From NCBI GenBank assembly GCA_028869005.1, contig JAGWTJ010000009.1, positions 1 to 33,254 of the forward strand: a DNA stretch of 33,254 bases, in the 5' to 3' direction. This DNA comes from Burkholderiales bacterium. Its GTDB lineage: Bacteria > Pseudomonadota > Gammaproteobacteria > Burkholderiales > Burkholderiaceae_C. Each line of letters begins with the position of its first letter. Positions within the stretch are counted from its first letter, which is position 1. Below, in pieces: positions 6,472-19,405 of this stretch. Below the pieces are notes generated by a model. It was not told the origin of the DNA, did no database searches, and saw only the letters and a list, made by a program, of their open reading frames with translations. The translations under genes and the position numbers were made by a program.

Positions 6472-7225
6472 GACGTGCTGCCATCTCGCGCGCGAACTCG
6501 ACGAAGGCCTGTGCGCCCTTGGAGGTCGGGTCGAACACCACGCCGGGCTGGCCATAGCTCGGCGCCTCGGCCAGGCGCACATTGCGCGGGATCACGGTGT
6601 CGAACACCTTGCCGCCGAAGTGCGCCTTGAGTTGCTCGCTGACCTGCTGCTGCAGCGTGATGCGCGGATCGAACATGACGCGCAGCAGACCGATGATCTG
6701 CAACTCGGGGTTCAGGTTGGCGTGCACCTGCCTGATCGTGTTCACGAGGTCCGACAGGCCTTCGAGCGCGAAGTACTCACACTGCATCGGCACGATCACG
6801 CCGTGCGCTGCCACCAGCCCGTTGAGCGTCAGCAGGCTCAGGCTGGGCGGGCAGTCGATCAGCACGAAATCGTAGTCGTCGCACACGACGGCGAGCGCCT
6901 GCCGCAGGCGTCGCTCCCGATGCTCCAGTTCGACCAGTTCGACCTCGGCCCCGGCCAGTTCTCGATTGGCGCCGACGACGTCGTAGCCGCCCTTGTCACT
7001 GCGCCGACGCGCTTCGGCGATGCCGGCCGACTCGAGCAACACGTCGTAGACCCCGAAGTCGAGCTGCCGCTTGTCGACGCCCGAGCCCATCGTGGCGTTG
7101 CCCTGCGGGTCGAGGTCGACCACCAGCACCCGCCGGCCCAGCTGCGCAAGTCCGGCCGCCAGGTTCACCGTCGTCGTGGTCTTGCCGACGCCGCCCTTCT
7201 GGTTGGCGACGCAGAAGATGCGCAT
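6464..7225 (-). CDS. parA: Chromosome-partitioning ATPase ParA (Soj)
   Basis: The 253-residue protein starts MRIFCVANQKGGVGKTTTT, with the deviant Walker A motif KGGVGKTT at residues 10-17. It continues with VLVVDLDPQGNAT and FVLIDCPPSLSLL (Walker A' and B) and ends in a short helix typical of type Ib chromosomal ParA. It binds DNA non-specifically as an ATP dimer and is released by ParB. An in-frame ATG at 7243 adds six residues that are not conserved, so 7225 is preferred. The gene follows rsmG after 178 bases and overlaps the start of the GNAT gene; parB is about 2.4 kb further on. Confidence 0.95.
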   Translation of the reverse strand: MRIFCVANQKGGVGKTTTTVNLAAGLAQLGRRVLVVDLDPQGNATMGSGVDKRQLDFGVYDVLLESAGIAEARRRSDKGGYDVVGANRELAGAEVELVELEHRERRLRQALAVVCDDYDFVLIDCPPSLSLLTLNGLVAAHGVIVPMQCEYFALEGLSDLVNTIRQVHANLNPELQIIGLLRVMFDPRITLQQQVSEQLKAHFGGKVFDTVIPRNVRLAEAPSYGQPGVVFDPTSKGAQAFVEFAREMAARLG

Positions 7226-7403
7226 GCCGCCGGCGCGGTTCACGGCGCACCCGGCCGGGTCGGCGGCGACGAAGGCGCGAAGTCTGGGAGGAATGGCACG
7301 GGCGGGGTAAGCGTGACTAAGGGCGTGATGGATGCATCGCAGCGCTATGGCGGCGGCCGAGGCCGCGAGGGTATCGCAAGAAGCGCGCTGGCCCGCTGGG
7401 AGC

Positions 7404-8071
7404 TCACCCGGCGCGCGCTGGAGCGTTGTCCCGACGCCGCATCCAGACCAGGCAACGCTGCGCCGCCAGTCCCGGCACGGCCAGCGGTTCCACGTGGAAC
7501 ACGCTGACGTCGGGCGGCAATTCAGCGATCTCGTCGGCCGGCGCGCGCCCTTTCATCGCCAGCCAGACGCCGCCCGGAGCCAGCAGGTGCGCCGTCCAGC
7601 GCACGAGGTCGGGGAGGCTGGCGAATGCGCGCGCCGTGATCAGGTCGAACTTAGGCGCCTGGAGCGCCTCGACGCGCGCCTGTTCGGCATGCAGGTTCGG
7701 CAGCGGCAGCGCGCCGGCGACTTGCCGCAGGAACGCGGCCTTCTTGGCCACCGCGTCGACACAGGTCACGTCCCAGCCGGGCCGCATGATGGCGATGACG
7801 ACGCCCGGCAGTCCGCCGCCGCTGCCGACGTCGAGCAGCCGACCGCCGCCGGCATGGCGTTCCAGCGCCGGCACGATCGCCAGGCAGTCGGCCAGATGCT
7901 GGGACAGCATCGCGGCACGGTCACGCACCGCCGTCAGGTTGTAGGCGGCGTTCCAGCGCTCGAGCAGATCGAGATAAGCCAGGAGGGCGCCGATCTGCGC
8001 GTCGCTCGGCGCCAGGCCGAGTTGGCGCGTCCACGCGGCCAGCGTCTCGCGCTCGACGGCCGAGCGCTGAT

Positions 8072-8075
<4 letters not shown>
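7404..8075 (-). CDS. rsmG: 16S rRNA (guanine527-N7)-methyltransferase RsmG
   Basis: RsmG methylates G527 of 16S rRNA using S-adenosylmethionine. The 223-residue product has the family hallmarks [21 protein letters not shown] and the SAM-binding loop [14 protein letters not shown], followed by [15 protein letters not shown]. No ATG exists at the expected place; TTG at 8075 overlaps the mnmG stop codon (TTGA) and gives the normal family length, so translational coupling is likely. A parS-like palindrome lies near the 3' end of this gene. Confidence 0.94.
7486..7501. promoter_or_regulatory. parS-like ParB-binding site inside rsmG
   Basis: The inner 14 bases GTTCCACGTGGAAC form a perfect palindrome. 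The 16-base site matches the bacterial parS consensus TGTTTCACGTGAAACA at 13 positions, with a symmetric T-to-C/A-to-G change that is also found in natural parS sites. It lies within the rsmG 3' end, close to parA. Confidence 0.7.
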
Positions 8076-10060
<1,985 letters not shown>

Positions 10061-10449: not shown

Positions 10450-10644
10450 ATGCAAACCAACATCGGCAGCCTGAATCGGCTGGTCCGCGTGATCGTCGGC
10501 CTCGTGCTCATCGGCCTGACGCTGGCCGGAACGATCGGCGTCTGGGGGTGGATCGGCGTCGTGCCGCTGGTCACCGGCGCGGTGGGGTGGTGTCCCGCCT
10601 ATCGCTTGCTGGGCATCCACGGCGGCGCGGCCAAGAAGACCTGA
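10450..10644 (+). CDS. DUF2892 (YgaP-type) small membrane protein
   Basis: The 64-residue product begins MQTNIGSLNRLVRVIVGLVL and has two membrane segments (about residues 12-30 and 33-48), followed by GWCPAYRLLGI. This N-G-x-x-(D/N)R-x-x-R and CPxYxxLG pattern is the DUF2892 signature, found alone or fused to rhodanese in YgaP. It sits in the inner membrane; its role is unclear. The ATG at 10450 is chosen because the family starts exactly there; longer forms add non-conserved residues. Confidence 0.82.
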   Translation: MQTNIGSLNRLVRVIVGLVLIGLTLAGTIGVWGWIGVVPLVTGAVGWCPAYRLLGIHGGAAKKT

Positions 10645-10706: not shown

Positions 10707-12839
10707 CTAATGCATCGGCGCCTGCGACGGCACCGTGCGCAGATCCTGCGCGACGCGCCCGTCGTGCAGCGCCACCACGCGCGACGCGCTGGCGATGGTT
10801 TCCGGCCGATGGGCGACCACGATGCGCGTCAGCGCGAGTTGCCTCACAGCCTGGTTGACCGCGCGCTCGCGCTCCACGTCGAGCGAACTCGTCGCCTCGT
10901 CGAGCATCAGCACCGCCGGCTGCCGGTACAGCGCGCGCGCCAGCAGCACGCGCTGCCGCTGTCCGCCCGACAGCGCCGTGCCCATGTCGCCGATCAGCGT
11001 GTCGTAGCCCATCGGCATCGCCTCGATCTCGTCGTGCACCGCCGCCACGCCCGCCGCGCGCTCGATGCGGGCGCGGTCGGGAGTCGGGTCGAAGAAGGCG
11101 ATGTTGTCGGCGATCGAACCCGAGAACAGCGGCTCGTCCTGCATCACGACGCCCACCGCGGCGCGCCAGGCGCGCACGCCGCGCCGCGCCAGCGGCTCGC
11201 CGCCCACCAGCACCTCGCCTTCGGTGGGCGCGCGGATGCCGAGCAGCAGCTTGAGCAGCGTCGTCTTGCCGCAGCCCGACGGTCCGACGATGGCCACCGA
11301 CTCGCCCGGCTCGATGACGAGATTCACGCCGCGCAGCACATCGGGCTCGCCGTCGGCGTAGCGGAAGCTCACGTTGCGCAGCTCGATGCGCGGCGACGCG
11401 GTGATCGGCACGCCGCTGCCGCCTTCGGCTTCGGGCGCGGCCAGCACGATGTCGGCCAGCCGCTCGCCGTGCAGCTTGAGCATCTTCAGCTCGGCCACCT
11501 TGTCGACCAGCGAACTCACGCGCTGTGCGAAGGTCTCCTTCCACGCGAAGAACGCAAACAGCATGCCGACGCTGAAGCGGCCGTCGAGCACGAGCAACGC
11601 GCCCAGGCCGATCACCACCACGCGCTCCAGCCCGAACAGGCCGCGATGCAGCACCGAGAACATCAGTTCGAGGCGACGCGTCGCGATCTGCGCGTTCATC
11701 GTCTCGACCACCAGGCTGGCGAAGCGCGAGCTGCGCTCGGCCTGCGCCCCGAACAGCTTGATCGCCTGCACGCCGCGCAGCGACTCGAGGAAGTGGCTCG
11801 ACTGCCGGGCCTCGAACACGAGCGCCTCCTCCGACGCCTCGCGCAGCGGCCGAAAGAACGCCCAGCGCAGTGCGCCGTAGGCTGCCACCGCCGCCAGCGC
11901 CACCGCGGTGAGGCGCAGGCTGTAGGCGAGCATCATCGCCAGCGTCAGCAGCACCAGTACGCCGTCGAGCAGCGCCTCGACGAAGCTGGTCGTCAGCGTG
12001 CGCTGGATGTGCTGCACGGCGCCGAAGCGCGACCAGACATCGCCGACATGGCGCTTTTCGAACCAGGCCACCGGCAGCCGCAGGAGATGCACGAAGACGT
12101 TGACCAACCACTGCAGGTTGAGCGTGGCCGACATCACCAGCACCGCCCACGAGCGCGCCGCCGCGGTAACCACCTGCAGGACGACCAGCAGCGCGAAGCC
12201 GACGACCAGCGTGAACAGCAGGTCGCGATCGGCGCTCACCACCACGCCGTCGACCACCCACTGCATGAGAAACGGTCCGAGCAGAACGAAGGCTTCGAGC
12301 GCGAGCGCAAGCACGACGATCTGCGCCAGCGAACGCCGCCAGCCGCTGACCGGCCCCACCAGTTGCGAGAGCGTGATGCGCTGACGCTGCACTTCTGGCC
12401 GAAAGCCCGGAGCCGGCTGCAGCTCGAGCGCGACGCCGGTGAAGTGGCGCGAGAACTCCTCGCGCTTCATGCGCCGCGTGCCGCGCGCCGGGTCGTGGAT
12501 CACGATCATCCCGCGCGAGACGCCGACGAGAACGACGAAATGGTTCAGGTCCCAGTGCAGGATGCAAGGCCGCTGCAACTGGTCGATCTCGTCGAGCTCG
12601 GCGCGCAGCGCGCGTGGCGCGAGGTCGAGCGCCTCGGCCATGCGCACCAGGTCGACCAGCGTCACGCCCTTGATCGACAGCGAGAAGCGCTGGCGCAGGC
12701 TCGGCAGGTCGGTGTCGTAGCCATGCGCCGAGGCCACCATCGCCAGGCAGGCCAGGCCGCATTCGGCGGCCTCGGTCTGCAGCACCAGCGGCACGCGGCG
12801 GCTGCCGATGCCCAGATGCAGCGCGTCGGCCAGGCCCAT
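10707..12839 (-). CDS. C39-peptidase ABC exporter for double-glycine peptides
   Basis: The 710-residue protein is a peptidase-containing ABC transporter (PCAT; CvaB/LagD/RaxB type). An N-terminal C39 protease (about 15-140) has Gln21, Cys27 (QTEAAECGLACL), His100 (HWDLNHFVVL) and Asp116 (HDPARG), so the catalytic set looks complete. Membrane segments span about 170-430. The ABC domain has Walker A GPSGCGKTT (519-527), signature LSGGQ (623-627), Walker B VLMLDE (643-648) and His677. Such proteins cut the leader after Gly-Gly and export the core peptide. The start codon overlaps the adaptor's stop by one base (TGATG). The GG-leader gene 14249-14443, two genes upstream, is the obvious substrate. 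Confidence 0.93.
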   Translation of the reverse strand: MGLADALHLGIGSRRVPLVLQTEAAECGLACLAMVASAHGYDTDLPSLRQRFSLSIKGVTLVDLVRMAEALDLAPRALRAELDEIDQLQRPCILHWDLNHFVVLVGVSRGMIVIHDPARGTRRMKREEFSRHFTGVALELQPAPGFRPEVQRQRITLSQLVGPVSGWRRSLAQIVVLALALEAFVLLGPFLMQWVVDGVVVSADRDLLFTLVVGFALLVVLQVVTAAARSWAVLVMSATLNLQWLVNVFVHLLRLPVAWFEKRHVGDVWSRFGAVQHIQRTLTTSFVEALLDGVLVLLTLAMMLAYSLRLTAVALAAVAAYGALRWAFFRPLREASEEALVFEARQSSHFLESLRGVQAIKLFGAQAERSSRFASLVVETMNAQIATRRLELMFSVLHRGLFGLERVVVIGLGALLVLDGRFSVGMLFAFFAWKETFAQRVSSLVDKVAELKMLKLHGERLADIVLAAPEAEGGSGVPITASPRIELRNVSFRYADGEPDVLRGVNLVIEPGESVAIVGPSGCGKTTLLKLLLGIRAPTEGEVLVGGEPLARRGVRAWRAAVGVVMQDEPLFSGSIADNIAFFDPTPDRARIERAAGVAAVHDEIEAMPMGYDTLIGDMGTALSGGQRQRVLLARALYRQPAVLMLDEATSSLDVERERAVNQAVRQLALTRIVVAHRPETIASASRVVALHDGRVAQDLRTVPSQAPMH

Positions 12840-14113
12840 CAGGCCCCCACGGCGCCGCGGCTGCGCCAGGCCAGCAGCGGCTCGAACAGCCAGGCCACCA
12901 GCCGGCGCCGGTCGAGCAGCACGTCGGCCGTCAGGCGCATGCCGGCCGCCAGTGGCGTGGACTCGGCGTCGGCCCTCGCATCCAGAGCCAGCGTGATGCG
13001 AAAGAGCGGCTCGCCCGCTGCCGCCGCCGCGGCGCTGGTGGCCGGCAGCGCGAGCGCGGCAAGTTCACTCGGCGCCAGCGGCACGCGCGAGACCTCGACC
13101 ACATGCGCCGGCCAATGGCCGAAGCGCTCGAATGGAAAGGCCTCGAAGCGCAGTTGCACCGGCATGCCGACGCGCACGAAGCCCACCGCGCTCGACGGCG
13201 CGTAGAGCTGGGCCTGCAGCCTGGCGCCGGACGGCACCAGACTGGCCAGCGCCGACGACGGCGAGACACTCTGTCCTGTCTCGGCCAATACCGCGCTGAT
13301 CGTCCCGGACTGTGGCGCACGCACGACAATGCGACGCTCGCCCTGCTGCTCTGCGCTCTCGCGCCGCAGCCGCGCCAAGTCGCGCGTAATGCCGCCGACG
13401 GCGCTTTCGGCCAGCAGCGGCAACGTCTGGCGCTCGCCCTCGAGCTCGGCGCGCTCGCGCTCCAGCGCTGCGCGCTGCCGCGCCAGCGCCTGTTCGGCTA
13501 CGCGCAGCCCGAGCAGTTCCTCGGTCTTGGACTGGACCTGCGCCTGCGAGATGAACTGCTGTGCCTCCAGCGACTTCAGCCGCGCCAGGGCGTCCTCGGC
13601 AAGCGTGCGGCGCTGGCGCTGCAAAGCCGCCTCGCCCTCGAGCTGCGTCGCCTCGCGCTCGAGCGCGGCCAGGCGGCGATCGAGCGCAGCACGACGCGCG
13701 TCGGCCAGCACCTGCTGCTGGCGCGCCGCATCGGCCAGGCTGCGGCTGCGCTCTTCGAGACTGCGCCGCACCTGCACCTCGTCGGCGTCGGCCAGTTGCG
13801 TGCGCTCGAGTCCCAACACGAACAGCACGTCGCCGCTGGCCACGGTCTGTCCTTCGGCCACATTGCGCTCGAGAACCGTCCCCGCCGCCGTCGGCACGAG
13901 GCGGATCAGGCCGCGGTCGGGCACCAGCACACCGGGGACCGTTGCGCGCCGCGTGTATTGGGCGATCGTCAGAAAAGCGATCGCGGCGGCGAGCGCGACG
14001 AGCACGCCGACGGTCAGCAAAGACAGCGAGAGCGGCCGCACCAACTGGACGCGGCCCAGCCAGGGCTGCGCCTGCGCCTCGAGCGCTTCGGGCCGGAATA
14101 GCGAGCGCGTCAT
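12839..14113 (-). CDS. HlyD/CvaA family periplasmic adaptor
   Basis: The 424-residue product has a short cytoplasmic tail, one membrane segment (about 30-52, LSLLTVGVLVALAAAIAFLTI) and the adaptor core. GVLVPDRGLIRLVPTAAGTVLERNVAEGQTVASGDVLFVL is the lipoyl-like half, in two parts around a long Arg/Glu/Ala-rich coiled coil (about 115-240), and IVVRAPQSGTISAVLAETGQSV is the second lipoyl half. This membrane-fusion protein connects the ABC exporter to an outer-membrane channel, which is not encoded here (a TolC-like protein elsewhere is expected). It is cotranscribed with the exporter gene and lies 135 bases downstream of the GG-peptide gene. Confidence 0.92.
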   Translation of the reverse strand: MTRSLFRPEALEAQAQPWLGRVQLVRPLSLSLLTVGVLVALAAAIAFLTIAQYTRRATVPGVLVPDRGLIRLVPTAAGTVLERNVAEGQTVASGDVLFVLGLERTQLADADEVQVRRSLEERSRSLADAARQQQVLADARRAALDRRLAALEREATQLEGEAALQRQRRTLAEDALARLKSLEAQQFISQAQVQSKTEELLGLRVAEQALARQRAALERERAELEGERQTLPLLAESAVGGITRDLARLRRESAEQQGERRIVVRAPQSGTISAVLAETGQSVSPSSALASLVPSGARLQAQLYAPSSAVGFVRVGMPVQLRFEAFPFERFGHWPAHVVEVSRVPLAPSELAALALPATSAAAAAAGEPLFRITLALDARADAESTPLAAGMRLTADVLLDRRRLVAWLFEPLLAWRSRGAVGA

Positions 14114-14248: not shown

Positions 14249-14443
14249 TTACCAGCCGCCCTTCGGCGACAGGGTGGCATTCCCGGCGGCTGCCCAGCCA
14301 CCCTTCGGCGATCCGCCGCCACATACCGCCTCGAATTGCGCGGAATCTAGCGCAACCGGCCCACTTAACGGGCGCTGAGACGGGCGCTGATCCTGTGTGC
14401 GGACGAACCGAGTGATAACGCGATGGGCAAACTGACGCAGCAT
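14249..14443 (-). CDS. Small peptide precursor with double-glycine leader and two SPKGGW repeats
   Basis: A 64-codon gene begins with ATG at 14443 behind a strong ribosome binding site (AGGAG, eight bases upstream). Residues 32-43, LDSAQFEAVCGG, match the double-glycine leader pattern (Leu -12, Phe -7, Val -4, Gly-Gly -2/-1). Cleavage after GG would release 21 residues: Gly, then SPKGGW, AAAGNATL and a second SPKGGW that ends the protein. The core is cysteine-free with Gly, Ala, two Lys and two Trp. It lies between luxR and the HlyD/C39-exporter genes on the same strand, which fits an exported bacteriocin or signal peptide. A longer start at 14494 lacks a ribosome site. I do not recognise the family; the identity rests on leader, repeats and context. 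Confidence 0.8.
   Translation of the reverse strand: MLRQFAHRVITRFVRTQDQRPSQRPLSGPVALDSAQFEAVCGGGSPKGGWAAAGNATLSPKGGW
14252..14311 (-). repeat. Direct repeat encoding the two SPKGGW units
   Basis: The 18-base units at 14252-14269 and 14294-14311 differ at one base (silent, Gly codon GGC/GGT) and start 42 bases apart. The near identity suggests duplication within the core-peptide coding region. Confidence 0.85.
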
Positions 14444-14449
14444 GGCAGG

Positions 14450-14457
14450 CTCTCCTC
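14450..14457 (-). promoter_or_regulatory. Ribosome binding site that fixes the peptide start
   Basis: The minus strand reads GAGGAGAG here, ending six bases ahead of the ATG at 14443. It is among the strongest ribosome binding sites in the window and rules against the longer open frame. Confidence 0.8.
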
Positions 14458-14521: not shown

Positions 14522-14537
14522 CTGTCATCTCTGACAG
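14522..14537. promoter_or_regulatory. lux-box-like operator upstream of the peptide gene
   Basis: CTGTCATCTCTGACAG is a perfect inverted repeat (6-base arms, 4-base centre) that fits the CT-N12-AG pattern of LuxR-type binding sites. Its centre is about 86 bases upstream of the peptide's start codon, a reasonable place for an activator site near -42 of a promoter. It is the best candidate target of the adjacent LuxR protein. Confidence 0.7.
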
Positions 14538-14598: not shown

Positions 14599-15312
14599 TC
14601 AGTGGATCAGGCCGAGTCGCAGTGCCTTGAGCACCGCTTGGTGCTTGTTGGCGCAGCCGAGCTTATGGGTCGCCGAGCCGACGTGCAGGTTGGCGGTGCG
14701 CTCGGTGATCCCCATCATGGCGCCGACCTCCCACGCCGTTTTGCCTTCCATCGTCCAGCGCAGCGCTTCGGCTTCGCGCGGCGTGAGGGCCGGTCGCTCG
14801 GGCTGCTGCGCCGCTGGCAGCAGTAGCCGCATCGCGGCATCCTGCGCGAGCACCGCGAAGAGCTGCAGGTCGGCCACGATGCGCTGCAATTCCTCGGGGT
14901 TGTCAGGCAGAGCGCGGTCGCGGTCGACGCCGAGCATGAAGTGCCGCCCCTCAGGCATGTGCAGCGCCATCGCGATGCCGGTGCGGTAGCCGAAATGCGC
15001 CTGCTCCTCCCACAGGTCGCCCGCATCGTGGCAGAGATAGGTCTGCTGGTTCCAGATGATGGGCATCGTCTGTCGCCTGCAATGCTGCATCACCGGATCA
15101 CGGCGATAGACGGAGGGGTTGCCGTAGGACTCCGAAAACGCCTGGGGCGTGTTGTCGACAGTGATGAACTCGCTGCGCCCCGGCGCACGGTCGATCACCG
15201 CCATCGCGGACACCGTCTCGAAGCCCAGGCGCTGCGTGAAGCGCACGACGTTGTCGCGGAAGTCCTCGCGACTCCGCGCCTTCAGTACCTCGTCGTATCC
15301 ACCAGGGAGCAT
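14599..15312 (-). CDS. LuxR-type quorum-sensing transcription regulator
   Basis: The 237-residue protein has an autoinducer-binding domain (about 10-160) and a GerE-type helix-turn-helix (about 175-237, LTPREAEALRW...TANLHVGSATHKLG). By TraR numbering, the pocket residues Tyr61, Asp70, Pro71 and Trp85 are kept as Tyr63, Asp72, Pro73 and Trp87, with the same spacing. Trp57 is replaced by Phe59. The DNA-binding invariants Glu178, Leu182 and Gly188 correspond to Glu180, Leu184 and Gly190. It should bind an acyl-homoserine lactone or a related ligand and control nearby promoters. GGAG precedes the ATG. No luxI lies in the window, so it may be a solo or use a distant synthase. Confidence 0.92.
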   Translation of the reverse strand: MLPGGYDEVLKARSREDFRDNVVRFTQRLGFETVSAMAVIDRAPGRSEFITVDNTPQAFSESYGNPSVYRRDPVMQHCRRQTMPIIWNQQTYLCHDAGDLWEEQAHFGYRTGIAMALHMPEGRHFMLGVDRDRALPDNPEELQRIVADLQLFAVLAQDAAMRLLLPAAQQPERPALTPREAEALRWTMEGKTAWEVGAMMGITERTANLHVGSATHKLGCANKHQAVLKALRLGLIH

Positions 15313-15343: not shown

Positions 15344-15359
15344 CTGACAGGGTTGACAG
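15344..15359. promoter_or_regulatory. Second lux-box-like site between luxR and the divergent gene
   Basis: CTGACAGGGTTGACAG fits CT-N12-AG and agrees with the site at 14522-14537 at 11 of 16 positions (CTG.CA....TGACAG). It contains a perfect TTGACA -35-like hexamer at 15353-15358 on the plus strand, though no good -10 follows. It lies about 32 bases from the luxR start and 37 from the RsaM-like start, so it could control either gene. Confidence 0.5.
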
Positions 15360-15395
15360 TTCCCAACTGGCCCCATGGTGCCAAAAGATACTGCC

Positions 15396-15812
15396 ATGAC
15401 GCGCACCGCCAATTTTCTTCCCGATCCCGTCGTACCCCCGGTAACACCGTGGTCGTTGCGCGCGTGGCCGCCGCTATTGTGGCAGCTCGACGCTGCGACA
15501 CGCGTGCGATTCCGCCACTTGGACACGCGCATCACCTTCGTCGGCGATGCCAGCAGCCCACCCGCCGGTCAGACCGTCTGGGCGACGCAGGGCGACGACG
15601 GCTCGGCCGGCATGGCCTGGGACTGGGTCGAGGTCACGCAAGGCATCGTCACCATGGCCGACCCGATGTCGGTCATCACCAACCTGCGGCTGCTGGGCGG
15701 CGAGGGCGAAGTGCTCACCGCCTACGCCGCAGCCCGCTACCTGAACGAATTCGTGCGTGCGCTGCCTTGGCAAAGCGAGGTTCACCGCGCGCTCCGTGGC
15801 CTGACGCACTGA
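15396..15812 (+). CDS. Small tryptophan-rich protein, probable RsaM/DUF4902-type quorum-sensing modulator
   Basis: The 138-residue soluble protein is rich in tryptophan (TPWSLRAWPPLLWQLD, AWDWVEVTQGIVTMADPMSV, ALPWQSEV). The last two segments, with ITNLRLL between them, match my memory of the DUF4902/RsaM family, whose genes lie next to luxI/luxR in burkholderias and pseudomonads and repress quorum sensing. No alignment could be run, so this is a moderate assignment. It is divergent from luxR, across the second lux-box-like site. It is not a LuxI synthase: the conserved Arg/Phe/Trp residues of LuxI are absent. ATG 15396 is preferred over 15375, but neither has a clear ribosome site. Confidence 0.65.
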   Translation: MTRTANFLPDPVVPPVTPWSLRAWPPLLWQLDAATRVRFRHLDTRITFVGDASSPPAGQTVWATQGDDGSAGMAWDWVEVTQGIVTMADPMSVITNLRLLGGEGEVLTAYAAARYLNEFVRALPWQSEVHRALRGLTH

Positions 15813-17027: not shown

Positions 17028-17846
17028 TCATGTCGCCGCACCCGCCGCCGCACTGGCCGCACCCGCCGCAACCCTGGCCGCCGCCGCACCGGCGCGCTCG
17101 TCGGCCGTGAAGGCCAGCCGCACGAAGGCGTCCTCGAAGTCGGCGCAGCCGGCGCGCTCGCACAGCGCCGCCACCGAGCCCTCGGCCACCGCACGGCCAT
17201 GCGCGACGACCACCACCTGGTCGCACAGGCGCTCCACCTCCTGCATGATGTGCGTGGAGAACACGATGCACTTGCCTTCGTCGTCGCGCAGCCGGCGCAG
17301 CGCCTCGCGCAGCGAACGCGTGGCCAGCACGTCCAGGCCGTTGGTCGGCTCGTCGAGGACGATGTTCGGCGGATCGTGCACGAGCGCGCGCGCCAGCGCC
17401 GTCTTCATGCGCTCGCCCTGGCTGAAGCCCTCGGTGCGGCGGTCGAGCAGCGGCTGCAGCTCGAGCAGCGTCGCGAGCTGCTCGGCGCGCGCCTGGGCGG
17501 CGTCCTGCGCCAGGCCCTGCAGCCGGCCGTAGTAGACGATGTTCTCGCGCGCCGTCAGCCGCGGGTACAGGCCGCGCGCGTCGCTCAGCACGCCCATGCG
17601 CGCGAGCGCCGCGCGCGGACGGCTCGTGACGTCGATGCCGTCGACCTCGATGCGGCCGCGGTCGGGCGCGACGAGCGCGGCCACCGCGCGCAGCGCCGTC
17701 GTCTTGCCGGCGCCGTTCGGCCCGAGCAGCGCCGTGATGCGGCCATCGGCGGCGCGCAGGTCCAGCCCCGCCAGCGCATGCACCTCACGTGCCTTGCGGC
17801 CGCGCCCCTGCACGAAGCGCTTGGCCAGATCGCGCACGACGATCAC
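17028..17846 (-). CDS. ABC transporter ATP-binding protein, NatA-like
   Basis: The 272-residue ATPase has Walker A GPNGAGKTT (residues 42-50), a FSQGE signature variant (usual LSGGQ), Walker B NIVLDEPTNGLD and the switch histidine in FSTHIMQEVE. It energises the NatB-like permease encoded just downstream. Start is GTG at 17846, overlapping the hydrolase stop as GTGA. The last 25 residues are a low-complexity Ala/Gly tail, matched in the DNA by an imperfect GCC/GCG repeat at about 17037-17096, and are unlikely to be part of the nucleotide-binding fold. Confidence 0.92.
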   Translation of the reverse strand: MIVVRDLAKRFVQGRGRKAREVHALAGLDLRAADGRITALLGPNGAGKTTALRAVAALVAPDRGRIEVDGIDVTSRPRAALARMGVLSDARGLYPRLTARENIVYYGRLQGLAQDAAQARAEQLATLLELQPLLDRRTEGFSQGERMKTALARALVHDPPNIVLDEPTNGLDVLATRSLREALRRLRDDEGKCIVFSTHIMQEVERLCDQVVVVAHGRAVAEGSVAALCERAGCADFEDAFVRLAFTADERAGAAAARVAAGAASAAAGAAT

Positions 17847-19405
17847 CGGCGACCTCCCGCCGGGCTGCCGGGCGGCACGAAGACGCCCGGCCGCGGCATC
17901 GCACGCGCGCAGTCCGCGTCGATCGCCAGCGCCTGCGCATCATCCTCTGCGTCGATGAAGCGGAAGATCACGTCGCGCATGCACGGCAGCGCCAGCGTGC
18001 CGTGTCCGGCCGCAGGCACGACGACATGGCGCGCCTTCGGGCCGAGCGCGCGCGCCACCTGTTCGCCGTGGCGCGGCGGCGTCACCGGATCGGCGCCGCC
18101 CGACAGCACGAGCGTCGCGCTGGCCGTCGGCGCGATCGTGTAGAAGGCCGCCGGCACGGCGCCGCGCGGCCAGTCGGCGCACACGCGGCGGTACAGCCCG
18201 GCGAAGTCCTGCCCGAAGTCGGCCCCCGGCCGGTCGGTGGCGGCGGCCAACCGCGGCATGTCCTCCGAGCAGATGACCGAGAAGTGCATGCCTTCGGCCA
18301 GGCGCAGCGCGCGCGAGCCGCCGCCGGCGACCACGCTGGCCAGTCCGATCAGCGCGTCGAAGCGCCCGCGCGCTGCCTCGTCGATGGCCTCGGGCAGCGC
18401 GGCCGCGACCCAGGGCGCGTACAACGCCGAGCGCACGAGGCCAAGCACGAAGTCGCGGTCGATGGTGATGCGCTCGGCGGCGCCGGTCACGGGCTGCGTG
18501 ACGCCGGCCTCGCGCGGCAGGGTGGCGAGCAGTCGCTCCCAGGCCGCGTGCAGGTCCCCATGGCGCTCGCGGCAGCGCGGCTCGGCACGGCAGGCGGCGA
18601 ACATCGCGTCGAGCGCCGCCTGGTTGTCGGTCGAGAACGACGCCGGCAGCACCATGTCGGGCGGTGCCACGCCGTCGATCACGGTGCGACGCACGGCGCG
18701 CGGGAACTGACGCAGGTATTCGAGCGCCGCGCGCGTGCCGTAGCTGCCGCCGACCAGATCGATGCGCTCGGCACCGAGCGCGATGCGCACGGCATCGATG
18801 TCCTGCATCGCGACCCAGGTCGTGTACTGGCGCAGGTCGCCATAGGGGAGCTTTTGCAGCCCGACGCGGCAGTCGGCTAGGCGTGCCACCTGCCGCTGGC
18901 CGGACGCGGCCAGCGCCAGCGGCGCGGTCGCCGGCAGTTCGGGGCAGTACAGCGGCGCGCTCGCGCCCGTCCCGCGCTGGTCGACGAAGACGAGGTCGCG
19001 GCGATTGGCGAGTCGCCCGAGCAGACTCTCGACCGTGCCCGCCAGCGCGATCGCGCTCTGTCCCGGCCCTCCGGCGAAGAAGAACACCGGATCGGGCTTC
19101 TTCTGCCGCGCCAGCGCCGGCAGCACCGCGAAGTGCACGTCGATCTTCGCGCCGTCGGGCCGCGCCGGATCGAGCGCGCGGCGCACCTGAGCGCACAGCG
19201 CGCCATGCTCGACGCCCTCCAGCCGGCAAGGGGTGAGCGCCGCTGCAGGCTCGGCGCCGGACGCTGCAGCCGCGCCTGCCGCCGCGGCGGCAAGCACGGC
19301 GAGGCCGGCACGCAAGAGAGAGCGCGCACCACGCCACCCACCACGCCGCGGCGCCCGCGGCGTCCGCAGCACCCGCGCCGCAGGCGATGAAAACGACGCG
19401 CTCAC
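17843..19405 (-). CDS. Exported alpha/beta hydrolase, S33 peptidase/TAP-like
   Basis: The 520-residue protein has a long basic leader and a hydrophobic signal segment (about 28-50). The hydrolase core shows the S33 marks: GGPG (112-115, oxyanion), VDQRGTG (141-147), nucleophile Ser221 in GGSYGTR, a C-terminal Asp in GGADPVTP and His in AAGHGTL. The family includes proline iminopeptidases and TAP-like tripeptidyl aminopeptidases, so a periplasmic peptidase or esterase is likely. GTG at 19405 overlaps the upstream stop as GTGA. It is cotranscribed with the NatAB-like exporter, but the functional link is unknown. Confidence 0.88.
   Translation of the reverse strand: MSASFSSPAARVLRTPRAPRRGGWRGARSLLRAGLAVLAAAAAGAAAASGAEPAAALTPCRLEGVEHGALCAQVRRALDPARPDGAKIDVHFAVLPALARQKKPDPVFFFAGGPGQSAIALAGTVESLLGRLANRRDLVFVDQRGTGASAPLYCPELPATAPLALAASGQRQVARLADCRVGLQKLPYGDLRQYTTWVAMQDIDAVRIALGAERIDLVGGSYGTRAALEYLRQFPRAVRRTVIDGVAPPDMVLPASFSTDNQAALDAMFAACRAEPRCRERHGDLHAAWERLLATLPREAGVTQPVTGAAERITIDRDFVLGLVRSALYAPWVAAALPEAIDEAARGRFDALIGLASVVAGGGSRALRLAEGMHFSVICSEDMPRLAAATDRPGADFGQDFAGLYRRVCADWPRGAVPAAFYTIAPTASATLVLSGGADPVTPPRHGEQVARALGPKARHVVVPAAGHGTLALPCMRDVIFRFIDAEDDAQALAIDADCARAMPRPGVFVPPGSPAGGRR

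What the first reader, a model, noticed from the sequence alone, without database searches (positions are those of the whole stretch)
14249..14443. Undescribed double-glycine peptide with twin SPKGGW repeats beside its own C39 exporter
The sequence shows a 64-codon gene with a strong ribosome site, a GG-type leader (LDSAQFEAVCGG) and a 21-residue core carrying two SPKGGW hexapeptides separated by AAAGNATL. HlyD and C39-peptidase ABC genes follow on the same strand. From knowledge of PCAT systems, the leader would be cut after GG and the core exported. The core is cysteine-free, so it is not a lantibiotic or disulfide bacteriocin; the two Lys/Trp units suggest a signal, a membrane-active peptide, or a substrate for modification. 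I know no family with this motif.
Basis: partly seen in the sequence, partly recalled or inferred. Interest (0 to 1): 0.92.

Follow-up and report, generated by a model that had tools for sequence, protein, structure and literature searches.

The report
LuxR-paired repeated hexapeptide signal precursor
A tiny bacterial gene encodes the same six-residue peptide twice beside an exporter and a LuxR-type sensor, and relatives repeat this design with their own version of the peptide, which suggests an undescribed kind of cell-to-cell peptide signal.

Summary
The peptide is real and conserved. Of 81 genomes of the genus, 42 carry the neighbouring LuxR gene, and 41 of these have a GG-leader peptide (GA in one) just downstream. 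The core holds 1-5 copies of a unit, typically [LASG]P[KRN]xxW (up to 7 in a leaderless form). Units are identical within a precursor in 39 of 44 multi-unit precursors yet differ between species; their codons differ synonymously.

A LuxR-type dyad lies about 92 nt before the peptide start in 41 of 42 promoters. In five genomes searched it is the only site at up to 1 mismatch. LuxI is in 3 of 81 genomes, none with the cassette.

In 11 of 80 named loci the exporter is missing; there the peptide lacks the leader but keeps the unit. A second LuxR clade is also paired with leaderless mini-peptides. Unit divergence tracks the LuxR ligand-binding domain, not its DNA-binding domain or the exporter.

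Best reading: a peptide pheromone system with the LuxR solo as regulator and probable receptor. Linkage, repeats and dyad are shown; secretion, sensing and receptor are inferred. No Pfam or NCBIfam family and no paper turned up in my searches; preprints were not searchable.

The parts
14249..14443 (-). precursor peptide gene (64 codons + stop)
   Evidence: a homologue just downstream of luxR in 41 of 42 genus genomes that have this LuxR
14294..14311 (-). unit 1, SPKGGW
14252..14269 (-). unit 2, SPKGGW (one synonymous codon difference from unit 1), at the C-terminus
14312..14443 (-). leader, residues 1-44; cut expected after G43 or G44
   Evidence: alignment A1; the cut itself is inferred from C39 biology
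14450..14456 (-). ribosome binding site AGGAGAG
14522..14537 (-). LuxR-type dyad CTGTCAGAGATGACAG, 94 nt before the peptide start
   Evidence: a dyad of this kind in 41 of 42 promoters scanned; the only site in this genome matching CTGTMAGANNTGACAG at up to 1 mismatch
14599..15312 (-). LuxR-family regulator with autoinducer-binding domain, probable receptor
   Evidence: PF03472 and PF00196; model matches QscR, SdiA, RhlR; no LuxI found in the genome, which is 92.5% complete
12839..14113 (-). HlyD-family adaptor
10707..12839 (-). C39 peptidase-containing ABC exporter
   Evidence: PF03412 E 4.6e-36
15375..15812 (+). DUF4902/RsaM-like protein, divergent from luxR
   Evidence: 18 of 18 members of alignment A3 match DUF4902 at E up to 0.5, best 8.3e-06, window protein 0.026 and below cut-off; a homologue in 80 of 80 named loci

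Best explanation
The gene encodes the precursor of a short secreted peptide signal. C39 cuts the leader after GG and, with HlyD and an outer-membrane channel, exports the core; further proteolysis frees one or more copies of an xP[KRN]xxW hexapeptide (SPKGGW here). The peptide is taken up by general oligopeptide import and acts on the solo LuxR encoded just upstream, which binds the dyad before the peptide gene and raises its own signal's production. The unit differs between species and co-varies with the LuxR ligand-binding domain. Shown: gene, conservation, unit repetition and identity, conserved dyad, linkage, near-absence of LuxI in the genus, leaderless forms where the exporter is missing. 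Inferred: cleavage, export, processing, import, binding to LuxR, autoinduction.
For: Linkage: peptide just downstream of luxR in 41 of 42 genus genomes with this LuxR; the exception, G032, lacks peptide, HlyD and C39 together. In 80 named loci (about half repeat the genus genomes) a peptide in 79; the other contig ends 140 nt past luxR. In fetched family loci 63 of 71 LuxR genes pass a strict detector against 208 of 20,000 control windows; the other 8 have a peptide by eye. Units identical in 39 of 44 multi-unit precursors; re-pairing gives 2.1 on average and 0 of 100,000 reach 39. Identical units differ at 60 of 134 four-fold sites in the genus set. Dyad in 41 of 42 promoters, unique in 5 of 5 genomes. 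LuxI in 3 of 81, none with the cassette. Eleven exporter-less loci carry leaderless forms that keep the unit. A second LuxR clade is paired with mini-peptides at 26 of 27 loci by eye. Unit distance against the LuxR ligand-binding domain, given a neighbouring gene: partial r 0.25, 1 of 1000 permutations; DNA-binding domain -0.02, HlyD -0.04, C39 0.07. pN/pS 0.43 in 16 GG-type pairs and 0.31 in 8 second-clade pairs. Precedent: PipR, a LuxR homologue, responds to a tripeptide (PMC4981722, abstract and passages).
Against: No experiment. LuxR keeps AHL-pocket residues D70, P71, W85 and G113 in all 43 first-clade sequences compared, so it may bind an AHL. The dyad was found once per genome at up to 1 mismatch, so no output genes are visible. 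No linked importer or unit-freeing protease was identified. How leaderless forms would leave the cell is unknown. Five of 44 multi-unit precursors have non-identical units, and L224, outside the pattern, has one unit unlike its other four. A subclade has LPRV, LPRI or LPRA units without Trp. RsaM-like divergence also tracks the unit, more weakly (0.18, 24 of 1000). The test on single pocket residues was weak (p 0.046). Four leaderless pairs show no overall protein-level constraint (pN/pS 0.93). Several LuxR genes under 55% identity in the family sample, above all in tandem arrays, have no peptide. No tree-aware test was run. AHL synthases other than LuxI, and LuxI outside the genus, were not searched.
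Confidence: 0.55

Rival explanations
1. The LuxR solo senses an AHL made by other bacteria, and the peptide is a secreted effector (public good, surface or host factor) under its control, not the LuxR ligand.
For: AHL-pocket residues D70, P71, W85 and G113 retained in all 43 first-clade sequences compared; LuxR solos that sense foreign AHLs are known (PMC10134790, passages); the dyad has lux-box form (form recalled).
Against: Leaderless forms with no exporter beside them keep the unit; W57 and Y61 vary; 8 of 10 paralogue sequences have Tyr at W85 (one of the 10 is an outlier from the G031 LuxI locus), and the second clade is peptide-paired too; unit divergence follows the ligand-binding domain and not the exporter.
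Confidence: 0.2
2. The peptide acts inside the producing cell as a cofactor, chaperone or anti-activator of LuxR; export only adjusts its level, so there is no communication between cells.
For: Leaderless forms (L328 as short as 10 residues) and the second-clade minis, several with a hydrophobic half.
Against: In 67 of 80 named loci HlyD and/or C39 is found and the peptide has a GG or GA leader, and repeated units suit a released product.
Confidence: 0.15
3. A class II microcin or bacteriocin: a small antimicrobial exported by its C39 system.
For: GG leader, C39 and HlyD are the microcin layout.
Against: No room for an immunity gene between luxR, peptide, HlyD and C39 in the loci mapped, though flanks were not screened; the core can be a single hexapeptide; leaderless forms exist; species-specific units suit a signal better.
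Confidence: 0.06
4. A multi-core RiPP whose units are enzymatically modified.
For: Repeated cores after a GG leader; one relative gives a weak match to XyeA (E 0.04, 14.1 bits against cut-off 33).
Against: The genes mapped as cassette are LuxR, RsaM-like, peptide, HlyD and C39, none a modification enzyme; flanks and distant loci were not screened for one.
Confidence: 0.04

Closest known systems
PipR/OryR subfamily of LuxR solos (PMC4981722 and PMC10134790, passages read)
   Same: LuxR-type regulator without LuxI; PipR responds to a small peptide (Ser-His-Ser) and needs a peptide ABC transporter
   Different: The genes listed around pipR are peptidases and the transporter, with no peptide precursor; the subfamily is marked by proline iminopeptidase neighbours and other pocket changes. 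Here a dedicated precursor gene is paired with luxR
ComS/XIP with ComR and other RRNPP systems of Gram-positives (recalled; RRNPP receptors and Opp import in PMC13220807 section 7)
   Same: Short peptides imported and sensed by a cytosolic regulator; ComS is leaderless with the signal at its C-terminus (recalled)
   Different: The regulator here is LuxR-type; most precursors have a GG leader and a C39 exporter
ComC/CSP-type GG-leader pheromones with C39 exporters (recalled)
   Same: GG leader cut and exported by a C39 ABC transporter
   Different: No histidine kinase among the mapped cassette genes; very short repeated units; Gram-negative host
Yeast alpha-factor-type multi-copy pheromone precursors (recalled)
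   Same: Several identical short peptides in one precursor, sequence differing between species
   Different: Eukaryotic secretion and receptor
LuxI/LuxR quorum sensing with RsaM (rsaM between luxR and luxI: PMC10134790, passage)
   Same: LuxR-type regulator, lux-box-like dyad, RsaM/DUF4902-like neighbour
   Different: No LuxI found; a peptide gene lies where one might expect the synthase

Membership tests
GG-leader substrate of a C39 peptidase exporter (PCAT) | conserved leader ending in GG, next to a C39 ABC gene | tested here: met
GG-leader substrate of a C39 peptidase exporter (PCAT) | cleavage after GG and export | not testable with these tools
   needs mass spectrometry
LuxI/LuxR AHL quorum sensing | cognate LuxI synthase (PF00765) | tested here: not met
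   0 in the own genome (92.5% complete), 3 of 81 in the genus and none with the cassette; the 14 control genomes did not ring, but the 3 genus hits show that the search can find the family; not searched outside the genus
LuxI/LuxR AHL quorum sensing | AHL-pocket residues | tested here: inconclusive
   D70 P71 W85 G113 kept, W57 to Tyr/Phe, Y61 variable (TraR numbering recalled)
OryR/PipR LuxR solos | proline iminopeptidase gene directly beside luxR | tested here: not met
   in the window and the loci mapped, the luxR neighbours are the peptide and the RsaM-like gene; the TAP-like hydrolase further off also occurs in genus members without the cassette
RRNPP peptide-sensing regulators | TPR-type receptor | tested here: not met
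   the regulator is PF03472 + PF00196 and its model resembles QscR and SdiA
Class II microcins | immunity gene beside the precursor | tested here: inconclusive
   none fits between luxR, peptide, HlyD and C39; flanks not screened
Class II microcins | antimicrobial activity | not testable with these tools
   needs a bench assay
RsaM (DUF4902) for 15375-15812 | profile match above the curated cut-off | tested here: inconclusive
   18 of 18 members match at E up to 0.5, best 8.3e-06; window protein 14.9 bits against cut-off 25; best PDB profile hit 4o2h BCAM1869, E 0.24; model too poor to decide
Any described peptide family | match in Pfam or NCBIfam | tested here: not met
   0 families for the window peptide; nothing above cut-off for ten relatives

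The most novel reading that the evidence does not exclude
LuxR-type receptors, textbook sensors of acyl-homoserine lactones, have in this family (Rubrivivax, Roseateles, Rhizobacter, Methylibium and kin) become receptors of ribosomally made hexapeptides, each encoded beside its receptor under a dedicated lux box. The system has an exported multi-copy form like a bacterial alpha-factor and a stripped-down leaderless form with a gene of 10-20 codons, and at least two LuxR clades carry it. This would be a peptide quorum-sensing class of Gram-negative bacteria with diversifying signal-receptor specificity.
Probability: 0.42. Interest if true: 0.96.

Novelty: categorically new. Interest (0 to 1): 0.9.

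Why it matters
Peptide quorum sensing is treated as the Gram-positive paradigm (PMC13220807, section 7), and many LuxR solos have no known ligand. Here dozens of LuxR genes, solos in the genus where LuxI was searched, sit beside a gene that spells out a candidate ligand in six residues, also in cultured named strains. Both the ligand question and the question whether Gram-negatives use ribosomal peptide pheromones become testable with synthetic peptides. Units that are identical within a precursor but differ between species also offer a system for studying signal-receptor co-evolution.

Tried and rejected
Chance repeat: rejected by shuffles and by conservation. Recent DNA duplication as the sole cause of identical units: not supported, as codons differ synonymously in all but one of the 21 genus precursors compared. 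ABC-2 permease, ABC ATPase, TAP-like hydrolase and glutaredoxin genes as cassette parts: rejected, because G012, G457 and G444 lack the cassette but keep the first three beside another LuxR (two of them also glutaredoxin and MnmG), and G300 has the cassette without them. RsaM-like fold check: model confidence 67, no useful match. Pocket-residue association with units: weak, p 0.046. A loosened mini-ORF detector gave 70 of 71 and 11 of 26 LuxR genes but also 988 of 4000 random windows, and was dropped for the strict one. In one search the strict kind of ORF occurred 19 times elsewhere in 1.43 million strand-bases, one of the 19 being the cassette peptide of L253. First order-wide peptide profile search: 24 of 399 genomes gave a match at E up to 0.05; G300 was taken further, G240 was looked at, the rest were not inspected. 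Plasmid search with LuxR: all 844 records under 60% identity. LuxR at E up to 1e-40 in the order: 3 of 399 genomes, one outside the family, with no peptide found there. Rfam and tRNA scans of the window: nothing. Papers: ten searches showed no paper with these motifs or this pairing; one search's one hit is an unrelated obesity-mapping paper. Preprints and most subscription journals are not in that library. PMC5539150: outline and abstract only, not used.

Full report
Observation. The ORF at 14249-14443 (minus strand) reads MLRQFAHRVITRFVRTQDQRPSQRPLSGPVALDSAQFEAVCGG-GSPKGGWAAAGNATLSPKGGW. It has an AGGAGAG ribosome site and is followed by HlyD and a C39 ABC gene on the same strand. It matches no Pfam or NCBIfam family.

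Conservation in the genus. A profile of ten members (the window peptide and nine relatives) was searched in 81 genomes of the genus, own genome included: 48 gave a match at E up to 0.05, the weakest of them noise. Linkage is the better test. An orthologue of the neighbouring LuxR (65% identity or more) is in 42 of 81 genomes. Just downstream of it lies a GG-leader peptide in 41 of 42 (for G017 seen, with GA in place of GG). HlyD was mapped behind the peptide in 39 of the 41; the G005 contig ends, and in G460 C39 but no HlyD was detected. The exception, G032, lacks peptide, HlyD and C39 together and keeps LuxR and the RsaM-like gene. One locus of another genus of the family, G300, has the same cassette.

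Anatomy of the precursor. After the GG come one to five copies of a short unit, usually the first directly after GG and the last at or near the C-terminus. Examples: SPKGGW twice (window), LPRGGW twice, LPKGTW three times, LPRGTW four times, GPNGGW five times, APKGTW twice, and single SPFHRW. In 83 precursors from distinct LuxR loci, 44 have more than one recognised unit and in 39 of 44 all are identical; 37 have one, and two (G449, L224) fall outside the pattern. Re-pairing first and last units at random gives 2.1 matches on average, at most 10, and never 39 in 100,000. Related species are in this set, so this is not a phylogenetic test. In the genus set, comparing all pairs of identical units, 60 of 134 four-fold sites differ, so the units have been kept alike at the protein level; only G452 has no codon difference. 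All 71 six-residue W-type units have Pro at position 2 and Trp at 6, by construction of the pattern. A subclade has LPRVS, LPRVG, LPRIG or LPRAG instead.

Control element. In 42 promoters (41 genus, G300) a CT-N12-AG dyad lies 90-95 nt before the start codon in 40 and 109 nt in one; G014 has only a partial site. The commonest form is CTGTAAGAGCTGACAG; the window has CTGTCAGAGATGACAG at 14522-14537. The pattern CTGTMAGANNTGACAG with up to one mismatch was searched in five genomes of my choice. It occurs in each only at the peptide promoter; the reversed control pattern gave two matches in one genome and none in the other four. That it is the LuxR site is inferred from its form and linkage.

The cassette. 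Tblastn mapping with window proteins shows that the ABC-2 permease, ABC ATPase, TAP-like hydrolase, glutaredoxin and MnmG genes are genus neighbours: genomes without the cassette keep several of them. The cassette is the DUF4902/RsaM-like gene, LuxR, peptide, HlyD and C39. LuxI (PF00765) is in 3 of 81 genomes and in none of the 42; several genomes are incomplete, and other synthase families were not searched.

Beyond the genus. A search with the LuxR alignment found 159 relatives in named genomes, of which the best 80 were kept, from records named Rubrivivax, Ideonella, Rhizobacter, Aquabacterium, Methylibium, Roseateles, Mitsuaria, Paucibacter and others. About half repeat genus genomes already counted: 40 LuxR sequences were new. 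The RsaM-like gene is detected in 80 of 80 and a peptide in 79 of 80; the remaining contig, L240, ends 140 nt past luxR. The automatic finder found 76; L241, L242 and L253 are seen. In a family sample, 102 of 399 genomes have a LuxR at E up to 1e-35. I fetched 85 of these loci; at least 13 further matches at 55% identity or more, several of them partial, were not fetched. Of 71 fetched LuxR genes at 55% or more with at least 250 nt downstream, 63 have a strict-pattern peptide within 350 nt, against 208 of 20,000 control windows. The other 8 have one by eye: L318, L323, L338, L339, L343, L344, L345 (unit not terminal) and L354. This sample overlaps in species with the 80 loci.

Leaderless forms. 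In 11 of the 80 loci no HlyD or C39 is detected in the 4.5 kb downstream (L222, L223, L224, L225, L227, L237, L238, L239, L243, L244, L255). All eleven have a short gene behind a dyad of the same kind that ends in a unit and lacks an intact GG leader: for example MQATHQTQTTTLLPRNGW, MQAVKTVSTRPVQLPRAGW, three LPKSGW units in L239, seven GPRGTW units in L223. L237 has a degenerate leader, and L244 appears to start at CTG. In the family sample, L328 reads MQVLLPRNAW from its ATG; a GTG three codons upstream overlaps the ribosome site, and I did not check whether an exporter lies further on. The unit is therefore what stays when leader and exporter are gone; overall pN/pS of four leaderless pairs was 0.93, so the rest of these genes looks unconstrained.

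A second LuxR clade. Genus genomes also hold LuxR paralogues at 37-54% identity. At 27 loci (29 genes; L174-L180, L262-L281) I found a leaderless mini-gene with an [LFI]P..G-type motif near luxR at 26, by eye and on either strand, for example MWEIICEILSLPRTGGW, MLDFILELLGIPRGGGW and MSYSTNTSFPRGGWGAVLDWLFGA. L264 is a weak case and L267 has none. Many, which I did not count, lie behind a different dyad (CTACAAGCCTTTGTAG type). pN/pS in eight chosen pairs is 0.31. No chance control was run for this clade. The RsaM-like gene was not detected at the seven loci where I looked for it (L174-L180), so LuxR and peptide are the parts that both clades were seen to share. In the family sample several low-identity LuxR genes lack a visible peptide, above all in tandem luxR arrays.

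Which protein does the peptide speak to? In 35 genus loci, unit distance correlates with divergence of the LuxR ligand-binding domain (rho 0.38; partial 0.25 given the neighbouring ABC permease, 1 of 1000 permutations reach it), not with its DNA-binding domain (-0.02), HlyD (-0.04) or C39 (0.07). The RsaM-like protein is intermediate (0.18, 24 of 1000), and the ABC permease itself, as a stand-in for species relatedness, has rho 0.36. Association of single LuxR pocket positions with unit changes is weak (p 0.046; LasR pocket list recalled). LuxR keeps D70, P71, W85 and G113 but varies at W57 and Y61, and its model resembles QscR, SdiA and RhlR. A LuxR homologue that answers to a peptide is on record: PipR responds to Ser-His-Ser and needs a peptide transporter (PMC4981722; abstract and passages).

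Reading. The parts fit a peptide pheromone circuit: LuxR solo, dyad, precursor, exporter. Identical units within a precursor and different units between species are what a multi-copy pheromone precursor looks like. Secretion, release of units, uptake, binding to LuxR and autoinduction are inferred. The main rival is a LuxR that senses foreign AHLs and drives a secreted effector. The leaderless forms, the second clade and the ligand-domain co-variation speak against it, but none of them is proof.

Novelty. Ten paper searches showed neither the motifs nor the pairing. Two surveys of LuxR solos, of which I read passages found by search terms (PMC10134790, PMC4338825), showed no such context there. 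[quoted passage not shown] Preprints are not held. I rate the pairing categorically new; this falls to a new variant of a GG-leader peptide system if LuxR is not the receptor.

Noticed in passing
L174-L180, L262-L281 (near luxR): A second LuxR clade is paired with leaderless mini-genes of about 16-28 residues with an [LFI]P..G motif, many behind a CTACAAGCCTTTGTAG-type dyad; several have a hydrophobic N- or C-terminal half.
   Followed up: partly
L327, L336, L347, L353: Tandem arrays of two to four extra luxR genes next to the peptide-paired luxR, without visible peptides of their own.
   Followed up: no
window 15344-15359: CTGACAGGGTTGACAG, a CT-N12-AG sequence of lux-box length but not a full dyad, just before the RsaM-like start; conservation not tested.
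   Followed up: no
L149 (G032) 7205-8080: Where peptide and exporter are missing, an ORF with a PEP-CTERM-like C-terminus (recognised by eye) follows luxR.
   Followed up: no
window 10450-10644 +: Small membrane-protein-like ORF between MnmG and C39 (MQTNIGSLNRLVRVIVG...); a similar sequence seems to lie convergently just past the peptide in several exporter-less loci (by eye).
   Followed up: no
window 17843-19342 -: Alpha/beta hydrolase with TAP-like C-terminal domain beside an ABC-2 transporter pair; also present in genus members without the cassette.
   Followed up: partly
L278: Two near-identical mini-genes in tandem (MLELILSYFFDLPRGGGGWA and MLELILSYFYDLPRGGGGWA) behind one dyad.
   Followed up: no
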